Below, piece by piece: positions 2,696-25,903 of a stretch of DNA of 44,330 nucleotides (position 1 is the first letter of the stretch; every line of letters starts with the position of its first letter). This DNA is from a virus. The notes under the pieces were generated by a model. It did not search any database. It saw nothing but the letters and a program-made list of their open reading frames with translations, and was not told the DNA's origin. Location of the stretch: positions 1 through 44,330 of IMG/VR virus record IMGVR_UViG_3300022745_000060. The stretch is one strand, 5' to 3'. A program made the position numbers and the translations under genes.

Positions 2696-2968
2696 TTAAA
2701 ATGGCGTTTCATCATCCTGCACCGTCATATCTATCTCCTTTGGCAACTTATCGAAATACTCGAATAGTTCTTTTTCATACGGCGCATTTAACCTGTCTAG
2801 TAGCGCGGCAATTTGTATCAGCGTGTGCGCTTCATAATACCCCGGTTTGTCATTTGGGTAAAACACCCAAAAACCGGATTCCTCGCATACGGCTTGACCT
2901 ATGCAGACATTGTTTCCAAAGATGTTCAAGAATGCGGGAGACAGAGTAGGTATTGTGGTTATACTCAT
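2696..2968 (-). CDS. Small hypothetical acidic protein
   Basis: 90 residues from the ATG at 2968 (MSITTIPTLSPAFLN). An upstream in-frame ATG exists, but the extra N-terminus would be encoded by a hairpin region and has a cysteine-rich, unlikely sequence, so I reject it. The C-terminus is acidic (TVQDDETPF), a pattern also common in phage ssDNA-binding proteins, but there is no OB-fold signature to support that. Function unknown. Confidence 0.65.
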   Translation of the reverse strand: MSITTIPTLSPAFLNIFGNNVCIGQAVCEESGFWVFYPNDKPGYYEAHTLIQIAALLDRLNAPYEKELFEYFDKLPKEIDMTVQDDETPF

Positions 2969-3007
2969 TTTGCGAAAATTAAAAGGATTAGAATTAAACA
3001 AAAGCGG

Positions 3008-3034
3008 CCAGGAATTACCCCAGCCGCAAAACCT
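3008..3034 (-). terminator. Hairpin, probable minus-strand terminator
   Basis: GCGGC and GCCGC arms around a partly paired loop, followed on the minus strand by TTTTGTTT. It lies between the genes starting at 3395 and 2968. Confidence 0.4.
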
Positions 3035-3101
3035 TAACCTAAATAAATTACCCAAACAAAAAATGAATAATTGCGCTTGTTCAAGCAGTTGCGCTGCTGC
3101 T

Positions 3102-3395
3102 TTATTTTTCCCGTGCAATATGGATAATATCGCCCAATTCGCCTTGGATTAACGTCAAACCATGTTCTTTTGCCATATGGTCAAATAACTCATTGTGTGG
3201 AAAATCTTTTTTGCCTATAATCGGGAGTAGTTTTTCGGTAATCTCGGCGGCAATTTCTTGGCAAAATTTAGCGTGGGTAAAATATCCTGGATTTTTTACA
3301 CCAAAATCAACAACAATTCTATTGTCGCCAGGATTTACTAGGTTAGTTTCATTTTCAAAGTACTCCGCAATTACTTTTACAATTTCGTCTTTCAT
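3102..3395 (-). CDS. Hypothetical early protein
   Basis: 97 residues, beginning MKDEIVKVIAEYFENETN. Alternating helix/strand appearance (VVDFGVKNPGYFTHAKFC, then helices), no known motif. It starts 2 bases after the stop of the gene at 3398-3604, so the two are in one operon. Confidence 0.7.
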   Translation of the reverse strand: MKDEIVKVIAEYFENETNLVNPGDNRIVVDFGVKNPGYFTHAKFCQEIAAEITEKLLPIIGKKDFPHNELFDHMAKEHGLTLIQGELGDIIHIAREK

Positions 3396-3397
3396 GG

Positions 3398-3604
3398 TTA
3401 TTGATTTTGAAGTTCAACAAGTTCAGCGGGAACGTCAAACCAATTGTTGTAACGAGGGTGTTTAATTTGGTAATTTCCAAAAGCCCCACTACTGAATTTA
3501 ACCCGGCGACCTTCAAGCACCCGATTTTTTCCAGCAAATTTGTTCATTATCCAGCGTGGATTTTTGCCCTGTTTGATTAGTTTGAATTTGACGTACTCGA
3601 ACAT
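3398..3604 (-). CDS. Small basic hypothetical protein
   Basis: 68 residues with many Lys/Arg (FKLIKQGKNPRW, GKNRVLEGRRVKF). Predicted beta-rich; could bind nucleic acid, but nothing diagnostic. It is flanked closely by genes on both sides in the same direction. Confidence 0.65.
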   Translation of the reverse strand: MFEYVKFKLIKQGKNPRWIMNKFAGKNRVLEGRRVKFSSGAFGNYQIKHPRYNNWFDVPAELVELQNQ

Positions 3605-3613
3605 GGTATTGGT

Positions 3614-3784
3614 TTAAAACGGTTTACAATTTAATTCTTCCAACTTCTCCGCAGCCCCAGCGCATGCTATAACCAGTATTTCCGATGCATCCCAAAGCGG
3701 CACAAATACAGCGCCGCTGTTGGAATAAATGCGCAATTGTCCGTCGACTTGGCGCAGGGTAGGGGTTGTCCAGCCTTTAAGCAT
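3614..3784 (-). CDS. Small hypothetical protein
   Basis: 56 residues from the ATG at 3784 (MLKGWTTPTLRQVDG). A longer start at 3826 would overlap the upstream gene by 26 bases and is less likely. The C-terminal half has a VIACAGAAEKLEELN helix. No family recognised. Confidence 0.6.
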   Translation of the reverse strand: MLKGWTTPTLRQVDGQLRIYSNSGAVFVPLWDASEILVIACAGAAEKLEELNCKPF

Positions 3785-3800
3785 TGTAAAAAGATTCTTC

Positions 3801-4007
3801 CTATTTAGTAATCGCATCGCATTCAAAATCGTATTCAGCGGTTACTTTGCCAAACGTGTAATTTTCAAAGCATTCAATTTGAGATGTACGGAAAAACTCA
3901 ATTTCTTCCTTGTCAGCATTTGATTCAAAAGGGCATTCAATTATCCATTCTTGGAAGAAAATTCCGACACTTAGATCGCCGTGGTCAGTGATAAATAACT
4001 TTGCCAT
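3801..4007 (-). CDS. Small acidic hypothetical protein behind a palindrome promoter
   Basis: 68 residues, beginning MAKLFITDHGDLSVG, acidic with paired aromatics. It is the first gene after palindrome promoter site 2 and leads a run of four small leftward genes down to 3102. Unknown function. Confidence 0.7.
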   Translation of the reverse strand: MAKLFITDHGDLSVGIFFQEWIIECPFESNADKEEIEFFRTSQIECFENYTFGKVTAEYDFECDAITK

Positions 4008-4024
4008 ATTGTTTTGATTTTCAA

Positions 4025-4074
4025 CAAAGTTCTAAATTTAAATTCACGTCAGCAATACCATAAAAATGGTATTT
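4025..4074 (-). promoter_or_regulatory. Palindrome promoter, site 2
   Basis: CAATACC-ATAAAAAT-GGTATTT at 4053-4074, then on the minus strand exactly 20 bases and GAACTTTG (4032-4025), matching (T/G)AnnTTTG. It drives the gene starting at 4007. The central bases are identical to site 5. Confidence 0.75.
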
Positions 4075-4261
4075 ATTTTGCCGGAATTGCAAAAATAAAC
4101 CCACAAATAACTAGTTGTCTATGTGTAGACCAGTTTTCAAAAGAACAAAACCAAGCCCACAAAGGCTTATCTCCTGCTATCCAGGCCGTTGGTGTTGCGT
4201 ACCCTATGCCATAAAATCAAGAACTCCAAAACTGGATAACTCCATTGCTTAACTTTTTCAT
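4073..4261 (-). pseudogene. Small membrane-type ORF interrupted by an in-frame TGA
   Basis: From the ATG at 4261 the frame reads MKKLSNGVIQFWSS, then TGA (4219-4217), then 47 further codons (FYGIGYATPTAWIAG and on) to a TAA at 4075-4073. The sequence on both sides of the TGA looks like one continuous small Trp-rich, membrane-associated protein. TGA is an ordinary stop elsewhere in this genome, so a nonsense mutation is the simplest reading. Readthrough or an assembly error are alternatives. Confidence 0.4.
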
Positions 4262-4284
4262 GTTTTTGTTTAATTTAATTGTGA

Positions 4285-5790
4285 TTAAAACGGCAAATTC
4301 CCTTCAAAATTCCGGTTGTCTGACTGGATTGGTTCTTGCAACGGTACTATGTTCGGTTGCTCCGACTTGACTAGAAACTGGTTAGAGGCGGATTGTACCT
4401 GTTCTTCCTGCCATTCCCACCATGACCCGGTGCGACCGTCAAAAGCCCGGTTTTTAGCGATAATATATTCGCAGTCGTACCTATTGTAAGACGTTCCTTT
4501 ATAGTTATAGCGCGTCACGATTTGCCCGCCTTCGTGGTGTTGTTCGCTCCAATCCTCGTATGCACCAGGCCGAAACAAAAGCAGCATCCAATCCCCTGCG
4601 TGTTCCATTGCGCTAGACCCTAGTACATCCTCTTTATGAGGTCTTCTATCTGCGCGGGTGTCTACACCTCGGTTGAACTGAGTAAGCAGTACCCCAAGTA
4701 TACCAGCGGCTTTATTGAACGCTGAAAAGTCTTTTGATAGCTTTGAAAGCGTCTTTACATCGTTTCCGCTGTTGTCGATCTTATCTATTCCGGTTTCACA
4801 AAGTTGGATATAGTCCAGGCAATAGGCAAATAGATCATACTTGCGAATGCACCAGCGGATTTTTTGCCGTATCAGCGTTCCTTTGTTGGTCGTTTCCTTC
4901 ATATCGAAAACGTAAAAGGGTAGATTTGAAACCCGCTTCAAAGCGTCTGAAAGCATCTTCATTTTATACTCAGGTAGTACCAGTTTATACTTTCCAGTAG
5001 CTTCATCAAATACACGGCTTGACAAATCCTTCATCGACAATCCGCTTTCGATCTTGTACACCCGCTGCCAAATCTGTTTTTTGGTAAGCTCCATTGAGAA
5101 GAATGCAACAGGCTTTCCGCTTTTTGCCAAATCCAAAAGCAACTTCAAAGCCTTTTCGGTTTTCCCCGTTCCTGTCGTACCAGCAATAAACCCAGTTTGG
5201 CCTTTTTGGACGCCGCCTGTAATCTCGTCGAATTCAGGCCAACAGGTAGATACTCCAATTTGCCCTTGCTCTATGTCTTGCCAAGCTTCATACATTTCAT
5301 CGCCTCGCGTCTTTTCTGGTTCTGGTTCTGAATAATCTGCCATTCGTTCTTGTACATATGCCCATGTTTCGCTTGGGTGGTACTGGCTATATTGCCCATT
5401 TTTCCTATCAAGCATCTGAGCATAAGCATCTGCGTAAATACCCAAATGCAATTCAATGTCGTATTCCTCTTTTAAAAATTCGATTGCAGAACTACATGTT
5501 TCAGGCTGTGAGTCCATAATCAAATCTGTAATGTCTCCCCACTTCGATGCGGCAATTTGCACATCCCAAGACATCATTTTGTTTACGTCCAAATCGTACA
5601 TCCACTCATAAATGACTCGAAAATGCTTGAACATTTCAGGTTTCAAAACCTTGTTGGCAATTGAAAAATATTCAGGCGCACAAAGCAGTGTTCCAATGAT
5701 ACTAGACTCTACGTGGTAAGTCGTTTTGGCTACGTCTTTTTGTTGGTTCTTGTTCATATCGCTAAGATTGATTTGTAAACATTGCGCCAT
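4285..5790 (-). CDS. dnaB: DnaB-like replicative helicase
   Basis: 501 residues. The N-terminal domain ESSIIGTLL is typical of DnaB. A linker leads to a RecA-type core with Walker A GTTGTGKT at about 204-211, the FFSMELT segment, Walker B FAYCLDYIQL, a switch-type LLTQFNRG, and HKEDVLGSSAMEHAGD. It unwinds DNA ahead of the phage fork as a hexamer. It overlaps the 110-residue gene upstream by 37 bases; an internal Met at residue 12 would reduce this overlap, so the start is uncertain. Helicase assignment is firm. Confidence 0.93.
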   Translation of the reverse strand: MAQCLQINLSDMNKNQQKDVAKTTYHVESSIIGTLLCAPEYFSIANKVLKPEMFKHFRVIYEWMYDLDVNKMMSWDVQIAASKWGDITDLIMDSQPETCSSAIEFLKEEYDIELHLGIYADAYAQMLDRKNGQYSQYHPSETWAYVQERMADYSEPEPEKTRGDEMYEAWQDIEQGQIGVSTCWPEFDEITGGVQKGQTGFIAGTTGTGKTEKALKLLLDLAKSGKPVAFFSMELTKKQIWQRVYKIESGLSMKDLSSRVFDEATGKYKLVLPEYKMKMLSDALKRVSNLPFYVFDMKETTNKGTLIRQKIRWCIRKYDLFAYCLDYIQLCETGIDKIDNSGNDVKTLSKLSKDFSAFNKAAGILGVLLTQFNRGVDTRADRRPHKEDVLGSSAMEHAGDWMLLLFRPGAYEDWSEQHHEGGQIVTRYNYKGTSYNRYDCEYIIAKNRAFDGRTGSWWEWQEEQVQSASNQFLVKSEQPNIVPLQEPIQSDNRNFEGNLPF

Positions 5791-6086
5791 TCAGGCTTTT
5801 TACTTTCTTCCATGTGCTTCCCTATTTCGATAATATCAGCAAGCACTTTCTCTTTTGGCGTTCCGTTCTGGATTGCTTCCTTAAATAAAAATATGCAAAA
5901 CTGACACCAAATTTCATGTTCTTTTGGTGATAACGATAGAGTTAAATTTGCCTCTTTCTTTACCTCAGTCTTATATTCATTACTCCCTGATCCAAACTTT
6001 GCACCTATTGCGTTAGTGCGTACCTGTTGGCGTTGAAGCGGGGCATGTAGTTCCTGGATTGCTTTAGAAAATTCTGTTCGGTTCAT
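5754..6086 (-). CDS. Hypothetical protein between initiator and helicase
   Basis: 110 residues, beginning MNRTEFSKAIQELHAP. The N-terminal half is polar; the C-terminal half is helical (SPKEHEIWCQFCIFLF, VLADIIEIGKHMEES). It starts with ATGA overlapping the stop of the initiator gene and overlaps the helicase start. Position between an O-like initiator and a DnaB-like helicase is where lambda-type phages keep a helicase loader, but it is much shorter than lambda P and has no loader motif. Role is inference from position. Confidence 0.7.
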   Translation of the reverse strand: MNRTEFSKAIQELHAPLQRQQVRTNAIGAKFGSGSNEYKTEVKKEANLTLSLSPKEHEIWCQFCIFLFKEAIQNGTPKEKVLADIIEIGKHMEESKKPEWRNVYKSILAI

Positions 6087-7006
6087 ACTCTTACCCCCAT
6101 TTTGGAAAATACATCGCCAACGGCTTTCAAATGCGCGTTGCTGGCCTCGATATCTTGTATTGTCAATTCGGGTTTCTGCTCAGTGTTGCGGATAGGTTGA
6201 AAGGACTTTATTGTTTCTGGGTTGTTCTTGTACTGGATAGGGCAGGGAACGACGACGGTTTTGTATTGAATTGCTTTGTTGATCCATGTAGCAATTGCAC
6301 CTCCCAACTTTTCGATCTTCCATCCAGTCTTGTCGTGGTGTAACCAAAATGCCTCTGCCTGATGATTAGCCCAGTTCCAGCAATCAATAATCTGTGGATG
6401 ATCTCTTTTTTTAGCAATTAACTTTTCATAAATTGGCTGTACCAATTCCTCTTGAGTAGGGGGGTAGATGTATTTTATCTTCTTTGCTTTTGACGGAATG
6501 ATTTCTACAACCTTAACCGCTGTTTCATCTACTTGATCGTGAATGGTTGTTAGGATTTCAGTTTCTTCAATTTTGGTTTGTGGTTCTTTCTTTTCTATTT
6601 TATTTAAGACTTTAATTTCTTTCTTTATATACTGTTCATTTTCTGAACACTTACTGTTCATTTTCTGAACACCTACCTGTTCATTTTCTGAACACCCATC
6701 GTTTAGTTTCTGAACATCTTGCTCATAAGCAATAGAGTAGAACTTAGCTGTTGCCCTCTTCAAATCATCACCTATTCGCTCTAAAAGTCCAGCAGAATCC
6801 ATGCGGTCAAAAATCCCTTTGACTGTTCCGCTAGATAACCCTAAAAAATCAGCTATCTTATGGCATCCGGTTTTTGTCCAGCCGTTTACCCCATACTCGG
6901 GATGGGTTTGAGTCTTGTAGATGTAATCTAAAACGCAGTATTCCAGAACGGAAATACCTAAAGCTTTGCGCGGGTTGTGTAGGACGTTGGTGTAAATCCA
7001 GTTCAT
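6083..7006 (-). CDS. Replication initiator-like protein with winged-helix N-terminus
   Basis: 307 residues from the ATG at 7006 (MNWIYTNVLHNP); a longer frame to 7069 runs through a terminator hairpin and is rejected. Residues about 20-95 look like a winged helix (EYCVLDYIYKT, HKIADFLGLSSGTVKGIF, MDSAGLLER), as in lambda O and plasmid-type initiators. The middle is Lys/Glu-rich and contains DNA repeats (6633-6716) that fit an origin. The C-terminus probably contacts other replication proteins. It is the first gene of the leftward operon and has a structured, regulated leader. Confidence 0.75.
   Translation of the reverse strand: MNWIYTNVLHNPRKALGISVLEYCVLDYIYKTQTHPEYGVNGWTKTGCHKIADFLGLSSGTVKGIFDRMDSAGLLERIGDDLKRATAKFYSIAYEQDVQKLNDGCSENEQVGVQKMNSKCSENEQYIKKEIKVLNKIEKKEPQTKIEETEILTTIHDQVDETAVKVVEIIPSKAKKIKYIYPPTQEELVQPIYEKLIAKKRDHPQIIDCWNWANHQAEAFWLHHDKTGWKIEKLGGAIATWINKAIQYKTVVVPCPIQYKNNPETIKSFQPIRNTEQKPELTIQDIEASNAHLKAVGDVFSKMGVRV
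6633..6716. repeat. Four iteron-like repeats inside the initiator gene, candidate origin
   Basis: TGTTCA-TTTTC-TGAACA occurs at 6633-6649, 6655-6671 and 6678-6694, with a degraded copy at 6700-6716 that keeps TTTCTGAACA. Spacing is 22, 23 and 22 bases. The middle copy is translated in a different frame (VQKMN rather than CSENEQ), so the DNA, not the protein, is what is conserved. An A-rich tract (minus strand, below 6633) lies next to the repeats, like the unwinding element beside the iterons of lambda ori in gene O. Confidence 0.7.
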
Positions 7007-19996: not shown

Positions 19997-20316
19997 TGAC
20001 TAATATCCAAGCTTCGATTTACTGCCTAATGACCGCTTCTTTGGCAGTCACTTTTCGCCGCTACTTAATCCAGGATGGCGGATTATTGGCGTGGTGGCCT
20101 AGGTTGGTTTATAAAATCTTTCCAATTAATTACGACAAATGGAGCGGATTGCACAAGGCTACTGAAAAAATCCTCATCACTTGCGCAACTTGTCAGGCTG
20201 GTCAGTTTGCTTTTTGGATTTCAATTTCACGGGGTAATTCAGTTGTTGATAGTCTGCTTTGCGCTGGGTTGTCGAGTGTGATTGCGCACATTATCGATCA
20301 AAAATATTTTGCATAA
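19996..20316 (+). CDS. Small membrane protein, DUF1360-like pattern
   Basis: 106 residues with three hydrophobic stretches (SIYCLMTASLAVTF, ILITCATCQAGQFAFWISIS, VVDSLLCAGLSSVIAHII). The second has TCxxCxxxxFAFW, like the TCPxCxxFW motif of DUF1360-type phage membrane proteins. Function unknown. Its stop shares a base with the next start. Confidence 0.65.
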   Translation: MTNIQASIYCLMTASLAVTFRRYLIQDGGLLAWWPRLVYKIFPINYDKWSGLHKATEKILITCATCQAGQFAFWISISRGNSVVDSLLCAGLSSVIAHIIDQKYFA

Positions 20317-20834
20317 TGGTTAAAGAGAAAATTGCTAAATTCAGGGAATACCTTGATTATTTTGAACGGCATTATGATAACGTGCAAAAGGCATGGGATT
20401 TGATAAACGAGAAATGCCAAGGCAAAGGTTTTCGTTTTATTTCAGATGATTTTGTTTGGCACAGCATTGATATTGGGGTAAAGATGCATGATGAAAGTAA
20501 GCTTTCAAGCAGTGAATTCACTCAGTACCGCGCAAGGTTTTTCCCAACTAAGGATGAACTACAAAATGATGTTGAATACTTGGCTGCATTGGAGCATCAT
20601 AAAGAAAAGAACGATCATCACTGGGAGAATTGGACTGTAAATTATAGCGATCACATGTACGCTGACATTTTTCTTGTAAGCATGGTTATTGACTGGGTTG
20701 CAATGAGTTTTGAGTTTGGCGACACTGCAAAATCTTACTACGAAAAGAATAAGGATAAAATTATTCTTCCTGAATGGGCAGTGAAGTTAATGTATCAAAT
20801 TTTTGATTGCGTGTACCCTGAAAAAGCAGATTAA
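20316..20834 (+). CDS. DUF5662-like HD-type phage protein
   Basis: 172 residues from the ATG at 20316 (TAATG with the upstream stop). Motifs HDESKLSSSEFTQYRARFF and HHKEKNDHHWENW match the DUF5662 pattern HD-x-SK ... Y ... HHxxxNxHHWE. The histidines and aspartates suggest a metal-binding HD-like fold, perhaps a hydrolase. No substrate known. Common as an accessory gene in phages. Confidence 0.75.
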   Translation: MVKEKIAKFREYLDYFERHYDNVQKAWDLINEKCQGKGFRFISDDFVWHSIDIGVKMHDESKLSSSEFTQYRARFFPTKDELQNDVEYLAALEHHKEKNDHHWENWTVNYSDHMYADIFLVSMVIDWVAMSFEFGDTAKSYYEKNKDKIILPEWAVKLMYQIFDCVYPEKAD

Positions 20835-20837
20835 GCA

Positions 20838-21500
20838 ATGTTCAAAAAACGAAAAAGCAAAGCCGATGCGCTTAAAGAAAGGCTACAAGATACGCAGGAC
20901 ATGGCAGAAGTATTACGCACGACGTTGGGTGCAGACATTGCGGAATACTACACTACTAAGCAACAGGGTCAAGTTCAGCGGCTTGTTACAGAGGACGGAA
21001 CATGGCTACCTAGCTTCACGGCGAACGGAAAAACTTATTACATTCGCAACCCAAAGGACGGGCTACCGTTACGCCGCCAACGGGAACTAGAAAAAATGTC
21101 TGTTGTCGTGCCGTTCAATGCCGGATTAGGTGAAGTTATTTCTAGCCTTTCCAGAATGAAGCGTATTTGCAATTCTCTTGTAGGCAGTAAGGATGCAAAT
21201 TTTACCGGGCTAGTTGAAGAGATTGTCAATTTAGAACGCGGATTAAGTGAGTCAAATCGAAAATGGCAAGCGTCCCTAATCATGTGTACCCTATTTATTT
21301 ATGAACCAGGAGAAGACCTAAAAACCTGGGATATTGACCACGCAAACCGGAAAATCGAGGATTGGGCTGCGGAGGGCTTGATTGAGGATGATTTTTTTAC
21401 ATTAGCTATGCAATGGAGTACATACAAACTCACATTGCAAGCGCAATTGTTGGAAAAAGTCAAAAAGGCGGCGCGGGTGTTCGGCTTCACGGATTTGTAA
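20838..21500 (+). CDS. Putative tail assembly chaperone (first part)
   Basis: 220 residues. The N-terminal 30 residues are a charged helix (KSKADALKERLQDTQDMAE); the rest is helical with YIRNPKDGLPLRRQRELEKM and HANRKIEDWAAEGLIED. Its end overlaps by 88 bases an open frame displaced by -1 (21413-21706), and both precede the tape measure gene, the context of gpG/gpGT chaperones. A possible but non-standard slip site C-AAA-AAG lies at 21461-21467. Confidence 0.55.
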   Translation: MFKKRKSKADALKERLQDTQDMAEVLRTTLGADIAEYYTTKQQGQVQRLVTEDGTWLPSFTANGKTYYIRNPKDGLPLRRQRELEKMSVVVPFNAGLGEVISSLSRMKRICNSLVGSKDANFTGLVEEIVNLERGLSESNRKWQASLIMCTLFIYEPGEDLKTWDIDHANRKIEDWAAEGLIEDDFFTLAMQWSTYKLTLQAQLLEKVKKAARVFGFTDL

Positions 21501-21706
21501 CAAGCCAGCGCGGTAAGTGGGAAAGTACAGCGGATTTGATTGATGAAAAGTATACTGAAATGGTATTGTTTGTCGCTCAGATGCTCGAAATAGATATGTC
21601 CGATCTTTGGGCTATATCCTACCCTGAATTTCTGCGATTGCTGGTTAAAGCGGATGAAATTGCAGAAATGAGAATGAACCAAATTGAGAAAGCAAAAAGC
21701 AAGTAG
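21413..21706 (+). CDS. Overlapping -1 frame ORF, possible chaperone extension
   Basis: 97 residues if started at the ATG at 21413 (MEYIQTHIASAIVG). It lies in the -1 frame relative to the 220-residue gene and is helical (YTEMVLFVAQMLEI, EFLRLLVKADEIAEMRM). It may be a separate gene or the T-part of a frameshifted tail chaperone. The long overlap argues for one or the other of these special cases. Confidence 0.55.
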   Translation: MEYIQTHIASAIVGKSQKGGAGVRLHGFVTSQRGKWESTADLIDEKYTEMVLFVAQMLEIDMSDLWAISYPEFLRLLVKADEIAEMRMNQIEKAKSK

Positions 21707-21734
21707 TAACTTTCCATAAATCAGGTTTTGTTAA

Positions 21735-21762
21735 GGCCGTGCTGAAAAGTGCGGGCTTTTTT
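21735..21762 (+). terminator. Imperfect intrinsic terminator upstream of the RAMP cassette
   Basis: GGCC(G)TGC ... GTGCGGGC with mismatches/bulge, followed by six T (21757-21762). It closes the preceding operon. Confidence 0.65.
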
Positions 21763-21763
21763 A

Positions 21764-21794
21764 TTTTGTTATTAAAAATATTATATTATCTTTG
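21764..21794 (+). promoter_or_regulatory. Host-type promoter of the RAMP cassette
   Basis: TTG at 21766-21768, 18 bases, TATCTTTG at 21787-21794. The -7 box is identical to that of the leftward early promoter, unlike the TAACTTGC boxes of the neighbouring late operons. Transcription should start at about 21800. Confidence 0.7.
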
Positions 21795-21799
21795 ACTTA

Positions 21800-21890
21800 T
21801 CCTTTGAACGGAGTGATGTACGCTCAAAGGAACAATTAGCAAATAAAATTGCTAACCTTGGCTGTCTGTACATCACCGGACAGCCTTTTT
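21800..21890 (+). ncRNA. Three-hairpin leader with exact loop-loop complement and terminator
   Basis: Hairpin 1: TCCTTTGA (21800-21807) with TCAAAGGA (21824-21831), loop containing GTGATGTA (21813-21820). Hairpin 2: TTAGCAA (21836-21842) with TTGCTAA (21849-21855). Hairpin 3: nine-pair stem 21860-21868 with 21877-21885, loop exactly TACATCAC (21869-21876), then six T. Loop 3 is the full reverse complement of the GTGATGTA in loop 1. It ends 12 bases before the ATG of the RAMP-like gene, so it is a leader, or a stand-alone RNA that also acts as one. Confidence 0.75.
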
Positions 21891-21902
21891 TATTTTATTA
21901 AT

Positions 21903-22538
21903 ATGGCCACTAAAACAGTTCAAAGCCCAACGGTGCAAATTAAAGCACCAAATTTTCAAGTAATTGAAGTTGAAATTGTAGGAACTGCGCCTTTTATGCA
22001 AGCTCGCTTTTCTCAAAAGTCGATGCTACAAATGGCCGACAAGATGAAAGCAGGGTCTACCGCTACGGGTAAAAAAGTTAGAAACGCCCGTGACTTCGAC
22101 GAAGACTTTGAGCAGGCAAAGCACATTTCAATGGATGGATGGGTTGGCATTCCAGCTAGTGCCTTTCGTTCTGCCTGTATTCGGGTGTGTTCTCTTGTTG
22201 GGTTCAAAATGACTCAGGCAAAAATGTCAATCTTTTTTGAAGCCGATGGCGAGGACAAGGTAGACGGCATTCCACTTGTAAAATTAATCGCAGGCGAACC
22301 AGAAAAATCCATGATGGCAACCCGAAATGCTACGGGAGTTGCTGATTTGCGTTGCCGTCCACTATGGCGCAAATGGGGTGCAAAGCTTCGGGTAAAATTT
22401 GATGCCGATCAATTCACTGCTCAGGATGTAATCAACTTAGTTCACCGAGCTGGTGTTCAATGCGGCGTTGGCGAAGGTAGACCATTTTCAAAAGATTCAA
22501 ACGGCTTAGGCTATGGGACTTTCACAATCAAAAATTAA
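21903..22538 (+). CDS. RAMP (Cas7-like) fold candidate
   Basis: 211 residues from the ATG at 21903; an upstream frame to 21849 would run through the terminator hairpin. Signatures in RAMP order: strand and turn EVEIVGTAPFM (22-32), GIPASAFRSACIR (82-94), which fits the IPGSSLKGxxR helix of Cas7/Csm3 proteins, and a C-terminal glycine loop CGVGEGRPFSKDSNGLGYG (187-205). Similar proteins are known in other phages without a defined role. It may coat RNA. It overlaps its partner gene by 26 bases and is followed by the pentamer array. Confidence 0.6.
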   Translation: MATKTVQSPTVQIKAPNFQVIEVEIVGTAPFMQARFSQKSMLQMADKMKAGSTATGKKVRNARDFDEDFEQAKHISMDGWVGIPASAFRSACIRVCSLVGFKMTQAKMSIFFEADGEDKVDGIPLVKLIAGEPEKSMMATRNATGVADLRCRPLWRKWGAKLRVKFDADQFTAQDVINLVHRAGVQCGVGEGRPFSKDSNGLGYGTFTIKN

Positions 22539-23025
22539 ACAGATTGCAAAGTTTGCGGATGGCTACCATGCCCCCGCTGGACTTAAAGCACAGACTGCCC
22601 TTGATGCGCTTTCAGATATTGAAAGTACAATAGGGCTTACACCGAGAAATGTTGTTGAAGCTAGTCGAAGCCCTTTAGCCGCTTTGCATCCATGTTTTGA
22701 ATGGAGCGACGATGTAGCGGCGGATAAATTCAGGCTTCACCAGGCATCAACCTTGATTAGATCTGTAAAGGTTGTAATTGAGGATGCAGAACCGATTGAA
22801 TACAGGCCATTTGTTCACGTGGTTGAAAACAGTGAACCGCAATACAAAAACGTTTCTTTTTTGTCTATTGACCAGGAAAAGGAAGTTGAAGAGAGTTTGA
22901 AAAAGTTCTTACTGTCTGCTCAAAAATCTTTAGACGAGTTTATACAGATCACCAAAAACAAGAAACGCAAAGCCCAACTTCTGAAAGCTCAGAAAAATCT
23001 GCAATTGGCCATTGCTGCTGTTTAG
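22513..23025 (+). CDS. Partner protein of the RAMP-like gene
   Basis: 170 residues. Start within the RAMP-like gene. A central conserved-looking stretch RNVVEASRSPLAALHPCFEW, then SDDVAADKFRLHQASTLIRS, followed by a beta segment and a long basic C-terminal helix (SLKKFLLSAQKSLDEF, KNKKRKAQLLKAQKNLQ). I recognise the middle motif as one found in phage proteins, but know no function. Its stop codon TAG runs directly into the first tetramer of the pentamer array. Confidence 0.7.
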   Translation: MGLSQSKIKQIAKFADGYHAPAGLKAQTALDALSDIESTIGLTPRNVVEASRSPLAALHPCFEWSDDVAADKFRLHQASTLIRSVKVVIEDAEPIEYRPFVHVVENSEPQYKNVSFLSIDQEKEVEESLKKFLLSAQKSLDEFIQITKNKKRKAQLLKAQKNLQLAIAAV

Positions 23026-23273
23026 GCAGGTGCGCCTAGGCCTGCTGCGGAAGTGAATGCAGCCGATAGGCGAAGCAGGCGAGGATCGGCATGGTACGGA
23101 TCGGTAAGGACTAGACCGGAAAGGCAGGCGAGGTATGTCATGGAACGGAGGGGACGCGTGAGGACTGGATTAGCAGGATTGGAACGGTGCGGAGAGCAAA
23201 GGAGAGAACCGGAGAAATAAGGCAGGCACGGCGAGGCCTGGAACGGAGGGGTTGGGGCGGGAGAGCAGACGCA
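23025..23273 (+). repeat. GGNNN pentamer array with 49-base super-period
   Basis: Non-coding, purine-rich and T-poor. Five consecutive units of exactly 49 bases (23029, 23078, 23127, 23176, 23225), each nine pentamers plus a final NGCA tetramer. The tetramers (GGCA, AGCA, GGCA, AGCA, GGCA, CGCA) end at 23028, 23077, 23126, 23175, 23224 and 23273. Of 45 pentamers 33 begin GG and 40 begin G, while the other three positions vary. It spans the stop codon to just before the terminator. Not a CRISPR, not a simple tandem repeat. Confidence 0.85.
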
Positions 23274-23277
23274 ATCA

Positions 23278-23306
23278 GGGAATGGTCAAAAGCCATTCCC
23301 TTTTTT
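23278..23306 (+). terminator. Intrinsic terminator closing the RAMP cassette
   Basis: GGGAATGG (23278-23285) pairs with CCATTCCC (23293-23300), then six T. Confidence 0.9.
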
Positions 23307-23331
23307 ATTTTGTTGAATTTGCGTAACTTGC
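23301..23331 (+). promoter_or_regulatory. Late promoter fused to terminator, copy 3
   Basis: T-run 23301-23306, 17 bases, TAACTTGC at 23324-23331; drives the tape measure gene. Confidence 0.55.
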
Positions 23332-23347
23332 AAACAAATCTTTCGTA

Positions 23348-25903
23348 ATGGATACAACTTGGAGGGTAAAAGTAGATGACAGCAATGTTGAGCAATATTT
23401 GGAAGACTTAGCCAAAGGGGTTGATAAATCAACAGAAGAATTCAACCAACTTGAAAAAGCCGCCACCGATGCACTGCAATTAATAGCCCAAAATACCGCA
23501 GCTACTAATCAAAAGATGGATGAGTACATAAAGGCGCTGGAAAAATCAAAACAAAAAGGGAAGGAAGCTGCTGAAGAAACTAACAAGTTTAGCCGAGGAT
23601 TGAAAACCTTATTTGGTAACTTGTCAATCGGTGGTGTATCGCTCAACGACTTATCCGATAGCCTGCAAAACGTAAAAAGCGGGTTGAAAGATGTTGGCTC
23701 AAGCAGCCAAGGTGCAGCTAAGGACGCGGCTGGAGCTGCAAAAGGTTTCGGTGTGCTTCGTCTTGGTGCATTGGCTTTGGTTGCCGTCGTTGGTGCTGCG
23801 TTGGTTGCTGCATTTTCAAAGTTTCAAGGTAACTTAGACAAAGTGCGTGTAGGATTGGCACAGGGAAAAATTGCATTAGATATTAGCATTACTGCACTCG
23901 GAAAGTGGGGCAATCAGTTGATACAGGCCGCAACGGGTCAAAAGTCCTTGAGGGATGCAATAAAGGATGCGTCGGCAGAAACAGCAGATTTTAACATACA
24001 GATCAGGCAGCAAATTGCCCTTGAAGGCAAGCTCGAAAAGCAGCGCATTGGACTAGAGCGACAAAAGCAAGAACAAACCGCAACTGCCGCACTTAGAAAG
24101 CAAGAAATTGAGCAATTGAACCTGATTGCGGATGATACAACAAAATCCTTTGCAGCACGTGAAGCAGCAGCAAAAAAACGCGGCGCATTATCAGAGCAAC
24201 AAGCAAAAGCAGATGAAAAGCGGATTCTTACCGAAATTGGGTTAAACGCAAGAATATCAGGCGGGCAAGAACAGCAAATCAAATCTGCAAAACAGATTAT
24301 TGCACTATCAAAGGAAGGCACACTCACAACTGAGATATTGGCAAAGCGAATCGAACAATCAGGCGTTAGCCAGGCCGAATCATTCAAGCGGGCAACACAG
24401 ATTTTCGCGCAAATTGGAGAACTTGGAGACGCGCAAGAAACCCTGCTAGGCATTCAATCCGAGGCATTCAATCAAGCGCAATCTATCCGCGCTGAACAAT
24501 CACAGGCAGCATTAGCCGAAAAGCAGCGGATTGAAGGGTTACAAAAATCAATTCAAGACCTACTTGCTACAACCACAGAGGCACGGGTAAAGCTTGGTGA
24601 TGAAAACGATGGCATCCAATTACAATTTGCGAATGCTACTGCTGAGGTAGAACAGCTTAAAGCGGAATATACTCGACTTGCGAAAGAACTTGGAACAGGT
24701 GAAACTGCGCAAGATATTGAACGACTGTTCAAACCTTTACAGGATATTGCTAATATTGATTTTGAAAAGGCAAGCTTTGGCAAATCATTGGAAGTTGTAA
24801 CAGGCGGATTAGAGCGACTATTAAAAGCCGCTACTGATCCGATAACAGGAAATATTGCCGATCTTGTTTCTTCCCAAACTGCAAAGCCACTAGCTGAACG
24901 ATTACGTGCCGATGGGTTGGAAGCGGGAAAAGCACTTGCAGCCGCAATAACTCAAGGTCAAAGTTTAGAAGCAGCCCGGCAAAAAGAAAAAGGGAATGAA
25001 GCCGCAAAGCAGTTGATAGGCCAACTTGCACCGGAAGCCATAAACGCTTTTTTTGAGGCCGAACAAGCCCGGTTTGAGCTGCGAATAGCCCAACAAGACG
25101 CACTGATTGCAAAGACTCAAGAACGATTGGACATTGAAAAGAAAGCTCTGGAAGAACAGCAAAAATTAGCCGATGAAGGACTTGCAAATGATCTAGATGG
25201 AGCAAAGAAACGGGTAGCAGAGCAAGAGCGCCTACTTCGAGACAGCGAAAACAAGAAACTGGAAATTGAACGAAAGGCCGCAAATCAACGCAAGATAATT
25301 GCAGCGGGTCAACAGGCAGTTGAATTGACTTTAGCCGTTGCAAAACTGATTAGTGCGGAAGCGTCAAAAGGCTTAATTGGTCTTGTCCTGGCCGTTGGTG
25401 GACTAGCGATCATCTCCCGACTGGTTGCCGCTGGACGTTCACAGGCCGCAAGCGAAGCAGGAAAAACCCAGAATTTTGCCACAGGTACGGAGCGAGTCCA
25501 TGGCGAAGGAACATGGACAAGTGACAGTATACCTGTGAATCTATCCAAAGATGAACGGGTAATCAAATCTAGCGACAATGCCAAATTAGGCTTCGAGCGG
25601 ATGTCGAATAAACAATTAGTGCATTATGCCCTGCTTGGTCAGCGCGTTCACTCCGACCCACTTTTTGCTTTTGCCATGGGTTTGCGTGGGCAACAAAGCA
25701 AGTTGGAAGAAAGTAAGCTATCATTGCAAGTTGATGTGATGAAGGACGCGTATAAAGAAGCGGCATTAATGGCAGCAGATAAACAAATTGACTATTGGCG
25801 GACACGCCCTATCCAGTATCGTAATGATTTAGGCGAAATGGTGACGGAATGGAAGGAGGGGAATCGGGTTGTGAGAAAGATTGAAGTTTTGGGTGAGGTG
25901 TAA
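23348..25903 (+). CDS. Tail tape measure protein
   Basis: 851 residues, mostly coiled coil and Ala/Gln/Lys/Glu-rich. A hydrophobic segment lies at about 140-160 (GALALVAVVGAALVAAF) and another at about 680-705 (GLIGLVLAVGGLAIISRLVA). The C-terminal part (NFATGTERVHGEG, DSIPVNLSKDERVI) is the usual TMP tail region. At about 0.15 nm per residue a tail near 128 nm long is expected. It is the largest gene after the chaperone block and has its own late promoter. Confidence 0.85.
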   Translation: MDTTWRVKVDDSNVEQYLEDLAKGVDKSTEEFNQLEKAATDALQLIAQNTAATNQKMDEYIKALEKSKQKGKEAAEETNKFSRGLKTLFGNLSIGGVSLNDLSDSLQNVKSGLKDVGSSSQGAAKDAAGAAKGFGVLRLGALALVAVVGAALVAAFSKFQGNLDKVRVGLAQGKIALDISITALGKWGNQLIQAATGQKSLRDAIKDASAETADFNIQIRQQIALEGKLEKQRIGLERQKQEQTATAALRKQEIEQLNLIADDTTKSFAAREAAAKKRGALSEQQAKADEKRILTEIGLNARISGGQEQQIKSAKQIIALSKEGTLTTEILAKRIEQSGVSQAESFKRATQIFAQIGELGDAQETLLGIQSEAFNQAQSIRAEQSQAALAEKQRIEGLQKSIQDLLATTTEARVKLGDENDGIQLQFANATAEVEQLKAEYTRLAKELGTGETAQDIERLFKPLQDIANIDFEKASFGKSLEVVTGGLERLLKAATDPITGNIADLVSSQTAKPLAERLRADGLEAGKALAAAITQGQSLEAARQKEKGNEAAKQLIGQLAPEAINAFFEAEQARFELRIAQQDALIAKTQERLDIEKKALEEQQKLADEGLANDLDGAKKRVAEQERLLRDSENKKLEIERKAANQRKIIAAGQQAVELTLAVAKLISAEASKGLIGLVLAVGGLAIISRLVAAGRSQAASEAGKTQNFATGTERVHGEGTWTSDSIPVNLSKDERVIKSSDNAKLGFERMSNKQLVHYALLGQRVHSDPLFAFAMGLRGQQSKLEESKLSLQVDVMKDAYKEAALMAADKQIDYWRTRPIQYRNDLGEMVTEWKEGNRVVRKIEVLGEV

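What the first reader, a model, noticed from the sequence alone, without database searches (positions are those of the whole stretch)
23025..23273. Hidden 5-base / 49-base periodic array that is not a tandem repeat
After the stop codon of the 170-residue gene, GG recurs every 5 bases with freely varying NNN between. The phase slips by exactly one base at 23078, 23127, 23176 and 23225, always 49 bases apart, and each slip falls on a tetramer NGCA. The structure is therefore five units of (nine GGNNN + one NGCA). 33 of 45 pentamers begin GG. Such strict register with free sequence suggests a ruler read by regularly spaced protein subunits, each contacting 5 bases, with one subunit in ten contacting 4. 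I know of no described element with this pattern, though similar G-rich tracts may exist beside homologous genes in other phages.
Basis: seen in the sequence. Interest (0 to 1): 0.95.

Follow-up and report, generated by a model that had tools for sequence, protein, structure and literature searches.

The report
Phage VIPR guide-RNA array
The odd "GG every five bases" stretch is the guide-RNA array of a VIPR system, a recently described CRISPR-like weapon that phages use against rival phages, here carried by an uncultivated virus just upstream of its tape-measure gene.

Summary
33 of 45 pentamers start GG, in five 49-base units of nine pentamers, each unit bounded by an NGCA tetramer. Shuffles reach at most 17 GG in this frame, and nothing else in the window exceeds 10.

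It is not a ruler and not undescribed. The 211-aa gene upstream is a Vipr (an ancestral Cas7-type RAMP). A profile of its clade hits the solved "SUSP1 Vipr protein" (PDB 36pp, E 1.3e-5), and its predicted fold matches Csm3/Cas7. The 170-aa gene sits where the vap gene belongs. The array matches the GGY/NN vrRNAs of VIPR systems (bioRxiv 2026.04.26.720920 / PMC13142463). Similar arrays lie beside 73 of 79 related vipr genes; on the reverse strand, 1 of 79.

New details here:
- Units are discrete modules that turn over wholesale between phages with identical vipr genes.
- The third base of this array is mostly A (25/45), not Y.
- Under the published one-base-skip code the last unit matches, 18/18 and codon-aligned, the tape-measure genes of two other viruses (suggestive).
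- The first unit of a relative's array matches the vipr gene itself, 17/18 in this window.

Known kind; new member with a slightly deviant consensus.

The parts
21903..22538 (+). vipr gene (211 aa, RAMP/Cas7-like protein, PHROG 4652 'unknown function')
   Evidence: Profile of the clade hits PDB 36pp 'SUSP1 Vipr protein' E 1.3e-5; hhalign to SUSP1+VSe11 Vipr 95.5%; AlphaFold model (mean pLDDT 68) best matched by Csm3/Cas7 chains, top E 8.7e-6; G-loop GVGEGRP..GYGTF conserved
22513..23025 (+). vap-position accessory gene (170 aa, PHROG 15946), overlapping the end of vipr
   Evidence: Homologues beside vipr in about 80 loci; confident model, pLDDT 93.6, no solved fold match; not similar to SUSP1 vap1
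23025..23273 (+). vrRNA array: five units of nine GG-N-NN pentamers, bounded by NGCA tetramers
   Evidence: same architecture beside 73 of 79 related vipr genes
23029..23073 (+). unit U0 (least regular; 4 of 9 pentamers begin GG)
23078..23122 (+). unit U1; NN = GA TC AT AC TC AA CT CC AA
   Evidence: two unrelated 18/18 skip-rule matches
23127..23171 (+). unit U2; NN = GA AT AT AC GG CG GA CT TT
   Evidence: no convincing target
23176..23220 (+). unit U3; NN = TT AC GC GA AA GA CC GA AA
   Evidence: one 18/18 codon-aligned match in a phage replication-initiation gene
23225..23269 (+). unit U4; NN = AC GA CT AC GG TG CG GA GA; predicted guide against tape-measure genes
   Evidence: 18/18 codon-aligned matches in two different tape-measure genes
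23277..23301 (+). terminator-like hairpin followed by a T run, just after the array
21860..21885 (+). terminator-like hairpin and T run just before vipr
22392..22417 (-). site in this vipr gene matching (17/18, skip rule) the first array unit of the relative L001

Best explanation
The array encodes the guide RNAs (vrRNAs) of a VIPR system. The RNA is transcribed with vipr and vap and ends at the hairpin at 23277-23301 (inferred). Vipr subunits, small Cas7-like proteins, polymerise along it, each gripping one GG(N) (inferred from the RAMP fold and the published SUSP1 work). The two remaining bases of each pentamer are left free to pair with DNA. In the target, each GGN is replaced by a single unread base, so a unit of nine pentamers reads NNxNNxNN..., 18 bases over 26, with the unread base usually at the codon wobble position (the published rule). 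The NGCA tetramers delimit separate guide units, here five. Binding silences genes of competing phages. For the last unit the predicted target is a tape-measure gene. Shown here: homology of Vipr, the fold match, conservation of the array architecture, module-wise turnover of units, and the U4 match. Inferred: transcription, processing, silencing, and the identity of the real targets.
For: Vipr clade profile hits the solved SUSP1 Vipr, and fold search returns Csm3/Cas7. Every relative fetched first had a GG lag-5 array. Of 79 further loci, 73 have one on the coding strand and 1 on the reverse strand, with tetramers mostly GGCA/CGCA and 8-9 pentamers per unit most common. Phages with 100% identical vipr genes (L029, L032, L035) differ by whole units, as expected of exchangeable guides. 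VSe11 and SUSP1 carry the published type beside the homologous gene. U4 searched with its first 16 code bases gave five distinct sites; the two that also match the last two bases are both tape-measure genes, in frame, with different synonymous codons. A scrambled-order control gave 2 hits. An L001 unit matches vipr codons VKFDADQF antisense. Published mechanism: PMC13142463.
Against: Third base is mostly A, where the published consensus is Y. The vap gene shows no similarity to SUSP1 vap1. No structured, pseudoknotted tail was found after this array. Targets of U1-U3 are at or near chance level, and U4's targets are phages with no shown link to this one. In the loci held, the skip-1 excess over shuffled order is small. 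No RNA data.
Confidence: 0.94

Rival explanations
1. A structural ruler or scaffold RNA: a fixed-register nucleic acid coated by protein subunits that sets a length (for example of the tail, since the tape-measure gene is next door); the variable bases mean nothing.
For: Strict register; place just upstream of the tape-measure gene, as in Gordonia phages ODay and Ecliptus.
Against: In most other phages fetched the cassette lies in early or lysogeny regions far from tail genes. Array length varies from a few to more than 20 units among relatives and between phages with identical vipr genes. The homologous SUSP1 system is a guide (PMC13142463).
Confidence: 0.02
2. A VIPR locus whose array has decayed or is no longer used: the third-base and GG consensus has drifted (12 of 45 pentamers lack GG; U0 has only 4 of 9).
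For: Weaker consensus than in relatives (33/45 here against 4962/5863 pentamers starting GG there); the Paludibacter MAG L019 has vipr and vap but almost no array left.
Against: 49-base spacing and all six tetramers are intact, vipr and vap are open, and a terminator-like hairpin follows. Random decay would break the frame.
Confidence: 0.1
3. The GG spacing is a by-product of a coding sequence or of G-rich composition.
For: A 55-codon frame overlaps part of it.
Against: Shuffles never approach the observed value; period 5 fits no codon frame; conserved across about 90 loci with free sequence.
Confidence: 0.005

Closest known systems
VIPR (Viral Interference Programmable Repeat) systems, PMC13142463; SUSP1 (type II) is the tested example
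   Same: Homologous Vipr RAMP; two-gene locus in a phage; flanking noncoding array of GG-N-NN pentamers with hypervariable NN; units of about 9 repeats. The preprint also reports staggered arrays.
   Different: Third base mostly A rather than Y; accessory protein not similar to SUSP1 vap1; no structured tail seen after the array; fixed 49-base units with NGCA delimiters. The type number could not be assigned because the supplement was not readable.
Class 1 CRISPR-Cas effectors (Cas7/Csm3 backbones)
   Same: RAMP fold with G-loop; by inference, subunits spaced regularly along a guide RNA; units behave as exchangeable modules.
   Different: No CRISPR repeats; none of the window proteins scanned matched a cas family; guide is noncontiguous, with 5-base rather than 6-base register.

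Membership tests
VIPR | Vipr: small RAMP with G-loop, homologous to known Vipr | tested here: met
VIPR | Accessory vap gene next to vipr | tested here: inconclusive
VIPR | vrRNA of 9-16 YNNGG repeats with conserved GGY and hypervariable NN | tested here: met
   Nine pentamers per unit, 33/45 begin GG; NN hypervariable in the clade. Deviation: third base A 25, C 10, T 9, G 1 in this array (the preprint allows 'a related consensus')
VIPR | Structured 3' tail after the repeat tract (pseudoknot in the SUSP1 clade) | tested here: inconclusive
   Only a terminator-like hairpin follows; some relatives have a recurring structured tail
VIPR | Targets follow the 1-base-skip (xNN) rule, skip at wobble | tested here: inconclusive
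   U4 matches two tape-measure genes 18/18 in frame; L001 unit matches vipr 17/18; other units at chance level
VIPR | RNA expressed, bound by Vipr, silences target DNA | not testable with these tools
   needs RNA-seq, pull-down, reporter assay
VIPR | Carried mainly by viruses | tested here: met
   Window is a 44-kb virus record with terminase, portal and DnaB-like genes
CRISPR-Cas | Array of identical direct repeats with spacers plus cas genes | tested here: not met
   No repeat array; no cas family in the window proteins scanned
Rfam RNA families | Match to a curated RNA family | tested here: not met
   No match up to E 1 in 21500-23500

The most novel reading that the evidence does not exclude
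In this staggered-array branch of VIPR, NGCA-bounded units are acquired and exchanged as whole guides, at the delimiter, fast enough that phages with identical vipr genes already differ. VIPR arrays would then be an updatable memory of rivals, with guides chosen against conserved protein motifs of rival phages such as the tape measure and vipr itself.
Probability: 0.25. Interest if true: 0.85.

Novelty: new member of a known kind. Interest (0 to 1): 0.5.

Why it matters
VIPR is a proposed ancestor of CRISPR effectors, known from one 2026 preprint. A raw-sequence reader found it from periodicity alone, which gives an independent, homology-free route to such arrays. The comparative data add that this array branch is widespread (338 confirmed relatives in one scan of viral contigs), that guide units turn over as modules between phages with identical vipr genes, and that predicted targets include a tape-measure gene and the vipr gene of competitors. 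Each can be tested directly.

Tried and rejected
A ruler role and a coding or compositional artefact were rejected (see rivals). Skip-rule searches for U1 and U3 (18 code bases) gave 2 and 1 hits in unrelated genes, not convincing; U2 (16 bases) gave two distinct sites, neither matching the last dinucleotide. No unit matched elsewhere in the stretches held of the U4 target contigs. A test of skips 0-3 with 447 units against the loci held shows an excess for skip 1, but most comes from one guide hitting many homologous vipr genes, so it is not independent proof. No megablast relative in the phage records. Bacteroidota genomes: 1 of 395 carries this Vipr clade, the query genome itself. The vap fold has no solved match.

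Full report
CHECK OF THE OBSERVATION. The periodicity is exactly as described. Six NGCA tetramers start at 23025, 23074, 23123, 23172, 23221 and 23270, always 49 bases apart, with nine pentamers between them; 33 of 45 pentamers begin GG. Against 1000 dinucleotide shuffles the same frame holds at most 17, and the next best place in the window holds 10. GG autocorrelation at lags 5, 10, 49 and 98 has z of 6.8 to 7.0. The 55-codon frame overlapping it is unremarkable, and no curated RNA family matches.

SURROUNDINGS. Upstream lie a 211-aa gene (21903-22538) and a 170-aa gene (22513-23025). Neither matches a named family: PHROG 4652 and 15946, both of unknown function; no Pfam hit above cut-off and no PADLOC hit. 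Terminator-like hairpins lie at 21737, 21860 and 23277. Downstream is an 851-aa gene that by its length and place looks like the tape measure; no family named it. The window is a 44-kb virus record with terminase, portal and DnaB-like helicase genes. The best terminase match is Flavobacterium phage 11b, so a Bacteroidota host is likely but not shown.

RELATIVES. tblastn found the 211-aa protein in Mycobacterium, Gordonia and Salmonella phages and a cyanophage. Every one of the 13 loci first fetched carries a GG lag-5 array on the coding strand. They parse as runs of GG-C/T/A-NN pentamers broken by GGCA tetramers. A profile scan gave 338 relatives in viral contigs, of which 80 loci were kept, 79 of them newly numbered. 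73 of these 79 have an array; 706 tetramers were found, 512 of them GGCA and 97 CGCA; 8 and 9 pentamers between tetramers are commonest. On the reverse strand 1 of 79 has one.

IDENTITY. The pattern and the RAMP-like glycine loop led to the preprint on VIPR systems (PMC13142463, bioRxiv 2026.04.26.720920). It describes a Vipr RAMP, a vap gene and vrRNAs of alternating GGY/NN, read with a one-base skip in double-stranded DNA. Four tests tie the window to it. (1) A profile of the window's clade, without any SUSP1-like member, hits PDB 36pp "SUSP1 Vipr protein" at E 1.3e-5. (2) hhalign to SUSP1 and VSe11 Vipr gives 95.5%. (3) The AlphaFold model (mean pLDDT 68, so modest) is best matched by Csm3/Cas7 chains, top E 8.7e-6. 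(4) In SUSP1 itself the GG/NN tracts lie one upstream and several downstream of the two genes, as published. The 170-aa neighbour holds the vap position but is unlike SUSP1 vap1; its model is confident (pLDDT 93.6) and has no solved match.

WHAT THE TETRAMER IS. In 334 distinct units the pentamer before the tetramer is GGC-R-H and the one after usually GGC-R-N, while inner NN positions are near-free. The unit therefore has fixed ends and a free middle. Phages L029, L032 and L035 have 100% identical vipr genes yet their upstream arrays are u01-u18-u19, u01-u31-u32-u31-u33-u34-u19 and u01-u41-u31-u33-u34-u19. Units come and go whole. This supports the tetramer as a boundary between guides rather than a four-base contact. 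How each mature vrRNA is cut, and whether neighbours overlap as the preprint says of staggered arrays, cannot be read from sequence.

TARGETS. Reading only the last two bases of each pentamer and one free base between, U4 gives ACxGAxCTxACxGGxTGxCGxGAxGA. Searched with its first 16 code bases, it gave nine contigs, five distinct sites by my reading of the hits. Two sites also match the ninth dinucleotide (chance 1 in 16 each), and both encode TDLTGWRDE in frame in the N-terminus of tape-measure genes (PHROG tape measure) from two different viruses. Their skip bases differ at most codons while the code bases are identical. A scrambled-order pattern gave two contigs. This is suggestive, not proof. 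U1 and U3 gave 18/18 hits in unrelated genes. Separately, the first unit of L001 reads antisense as codons of the conserved Vipr motif (VKFDADQF region): 17/18 in this window, L002, L020 and L021, and 16/18 in L001's own gene. That would be a guide against competing VIPRs, which the preprint also reports in another clade.

DIFFERENCES FROM THE PUBLISHED CONSENSUS. The third base here is A 25, C 10, T 9, G 1, against mostly C in relatives. The array ends in a terminator-like hairpin with no separate structured tail, whereas several relatives carry recurring structured tails.

VERDICT. A real, well-conserved element of an already described kind, found independently. A new member of VIPR with a slightly deviant consensus; no new category is needed.

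Noticed in passing
21413-25903; L008 and L012 around 2900-6735: The VIPR cassette lies between tail-chaperone-like genes and the tape-measure-like gene here; in the Gordonia phages ODay and Ecliptus it also lies between the tail assembly chaperone and the tape-measure gene, while in other phages fetched it sits near repressor or excisionase genes.
   Followed up: partly
L026-L042 after each array; L070, L076, L087, L090, L094: Recurring structured tails follow arrays in some relatives (for example GGCGTGATGGGCATCACTATAAAAGGCCC, and ACCGCGACCGGAGAGCGGGGTAAAAATGGCCGG), possibly pseudoknots; none was seen in the window.
   Followed up: partly
L019 4669-5354: Paludibacter MAG contig with vipr and vap but only a short GG remnant before a terminator-like hairpin: array apparently lost.
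   Followed up: partly
L029, L032, L035 (also L033, L038, L042 and L082, L083): Arrays of phages with identical or near-identical vipr genes differ by whole units, including one unit duplicated in L032.
   Followed up: partly
L010, L116 and the phage records: 131 phage records, mostly Felixounavirus-like coliphages, carry a SUSP1-like Vipr gene; in the records listed it is annotated as a hypothetical protein or not at all.
   Followed up: no
6630-6716: 22-base unit repeated 3.9 times (TACTGTTCATTTTCTGAACACC), partly palindromic; could be iterons or operators.
   Followed up: no
20259-20834: Gene with a DUF5662 domain (E 3.5e-20) amid the tail genes.
   Followed up: no
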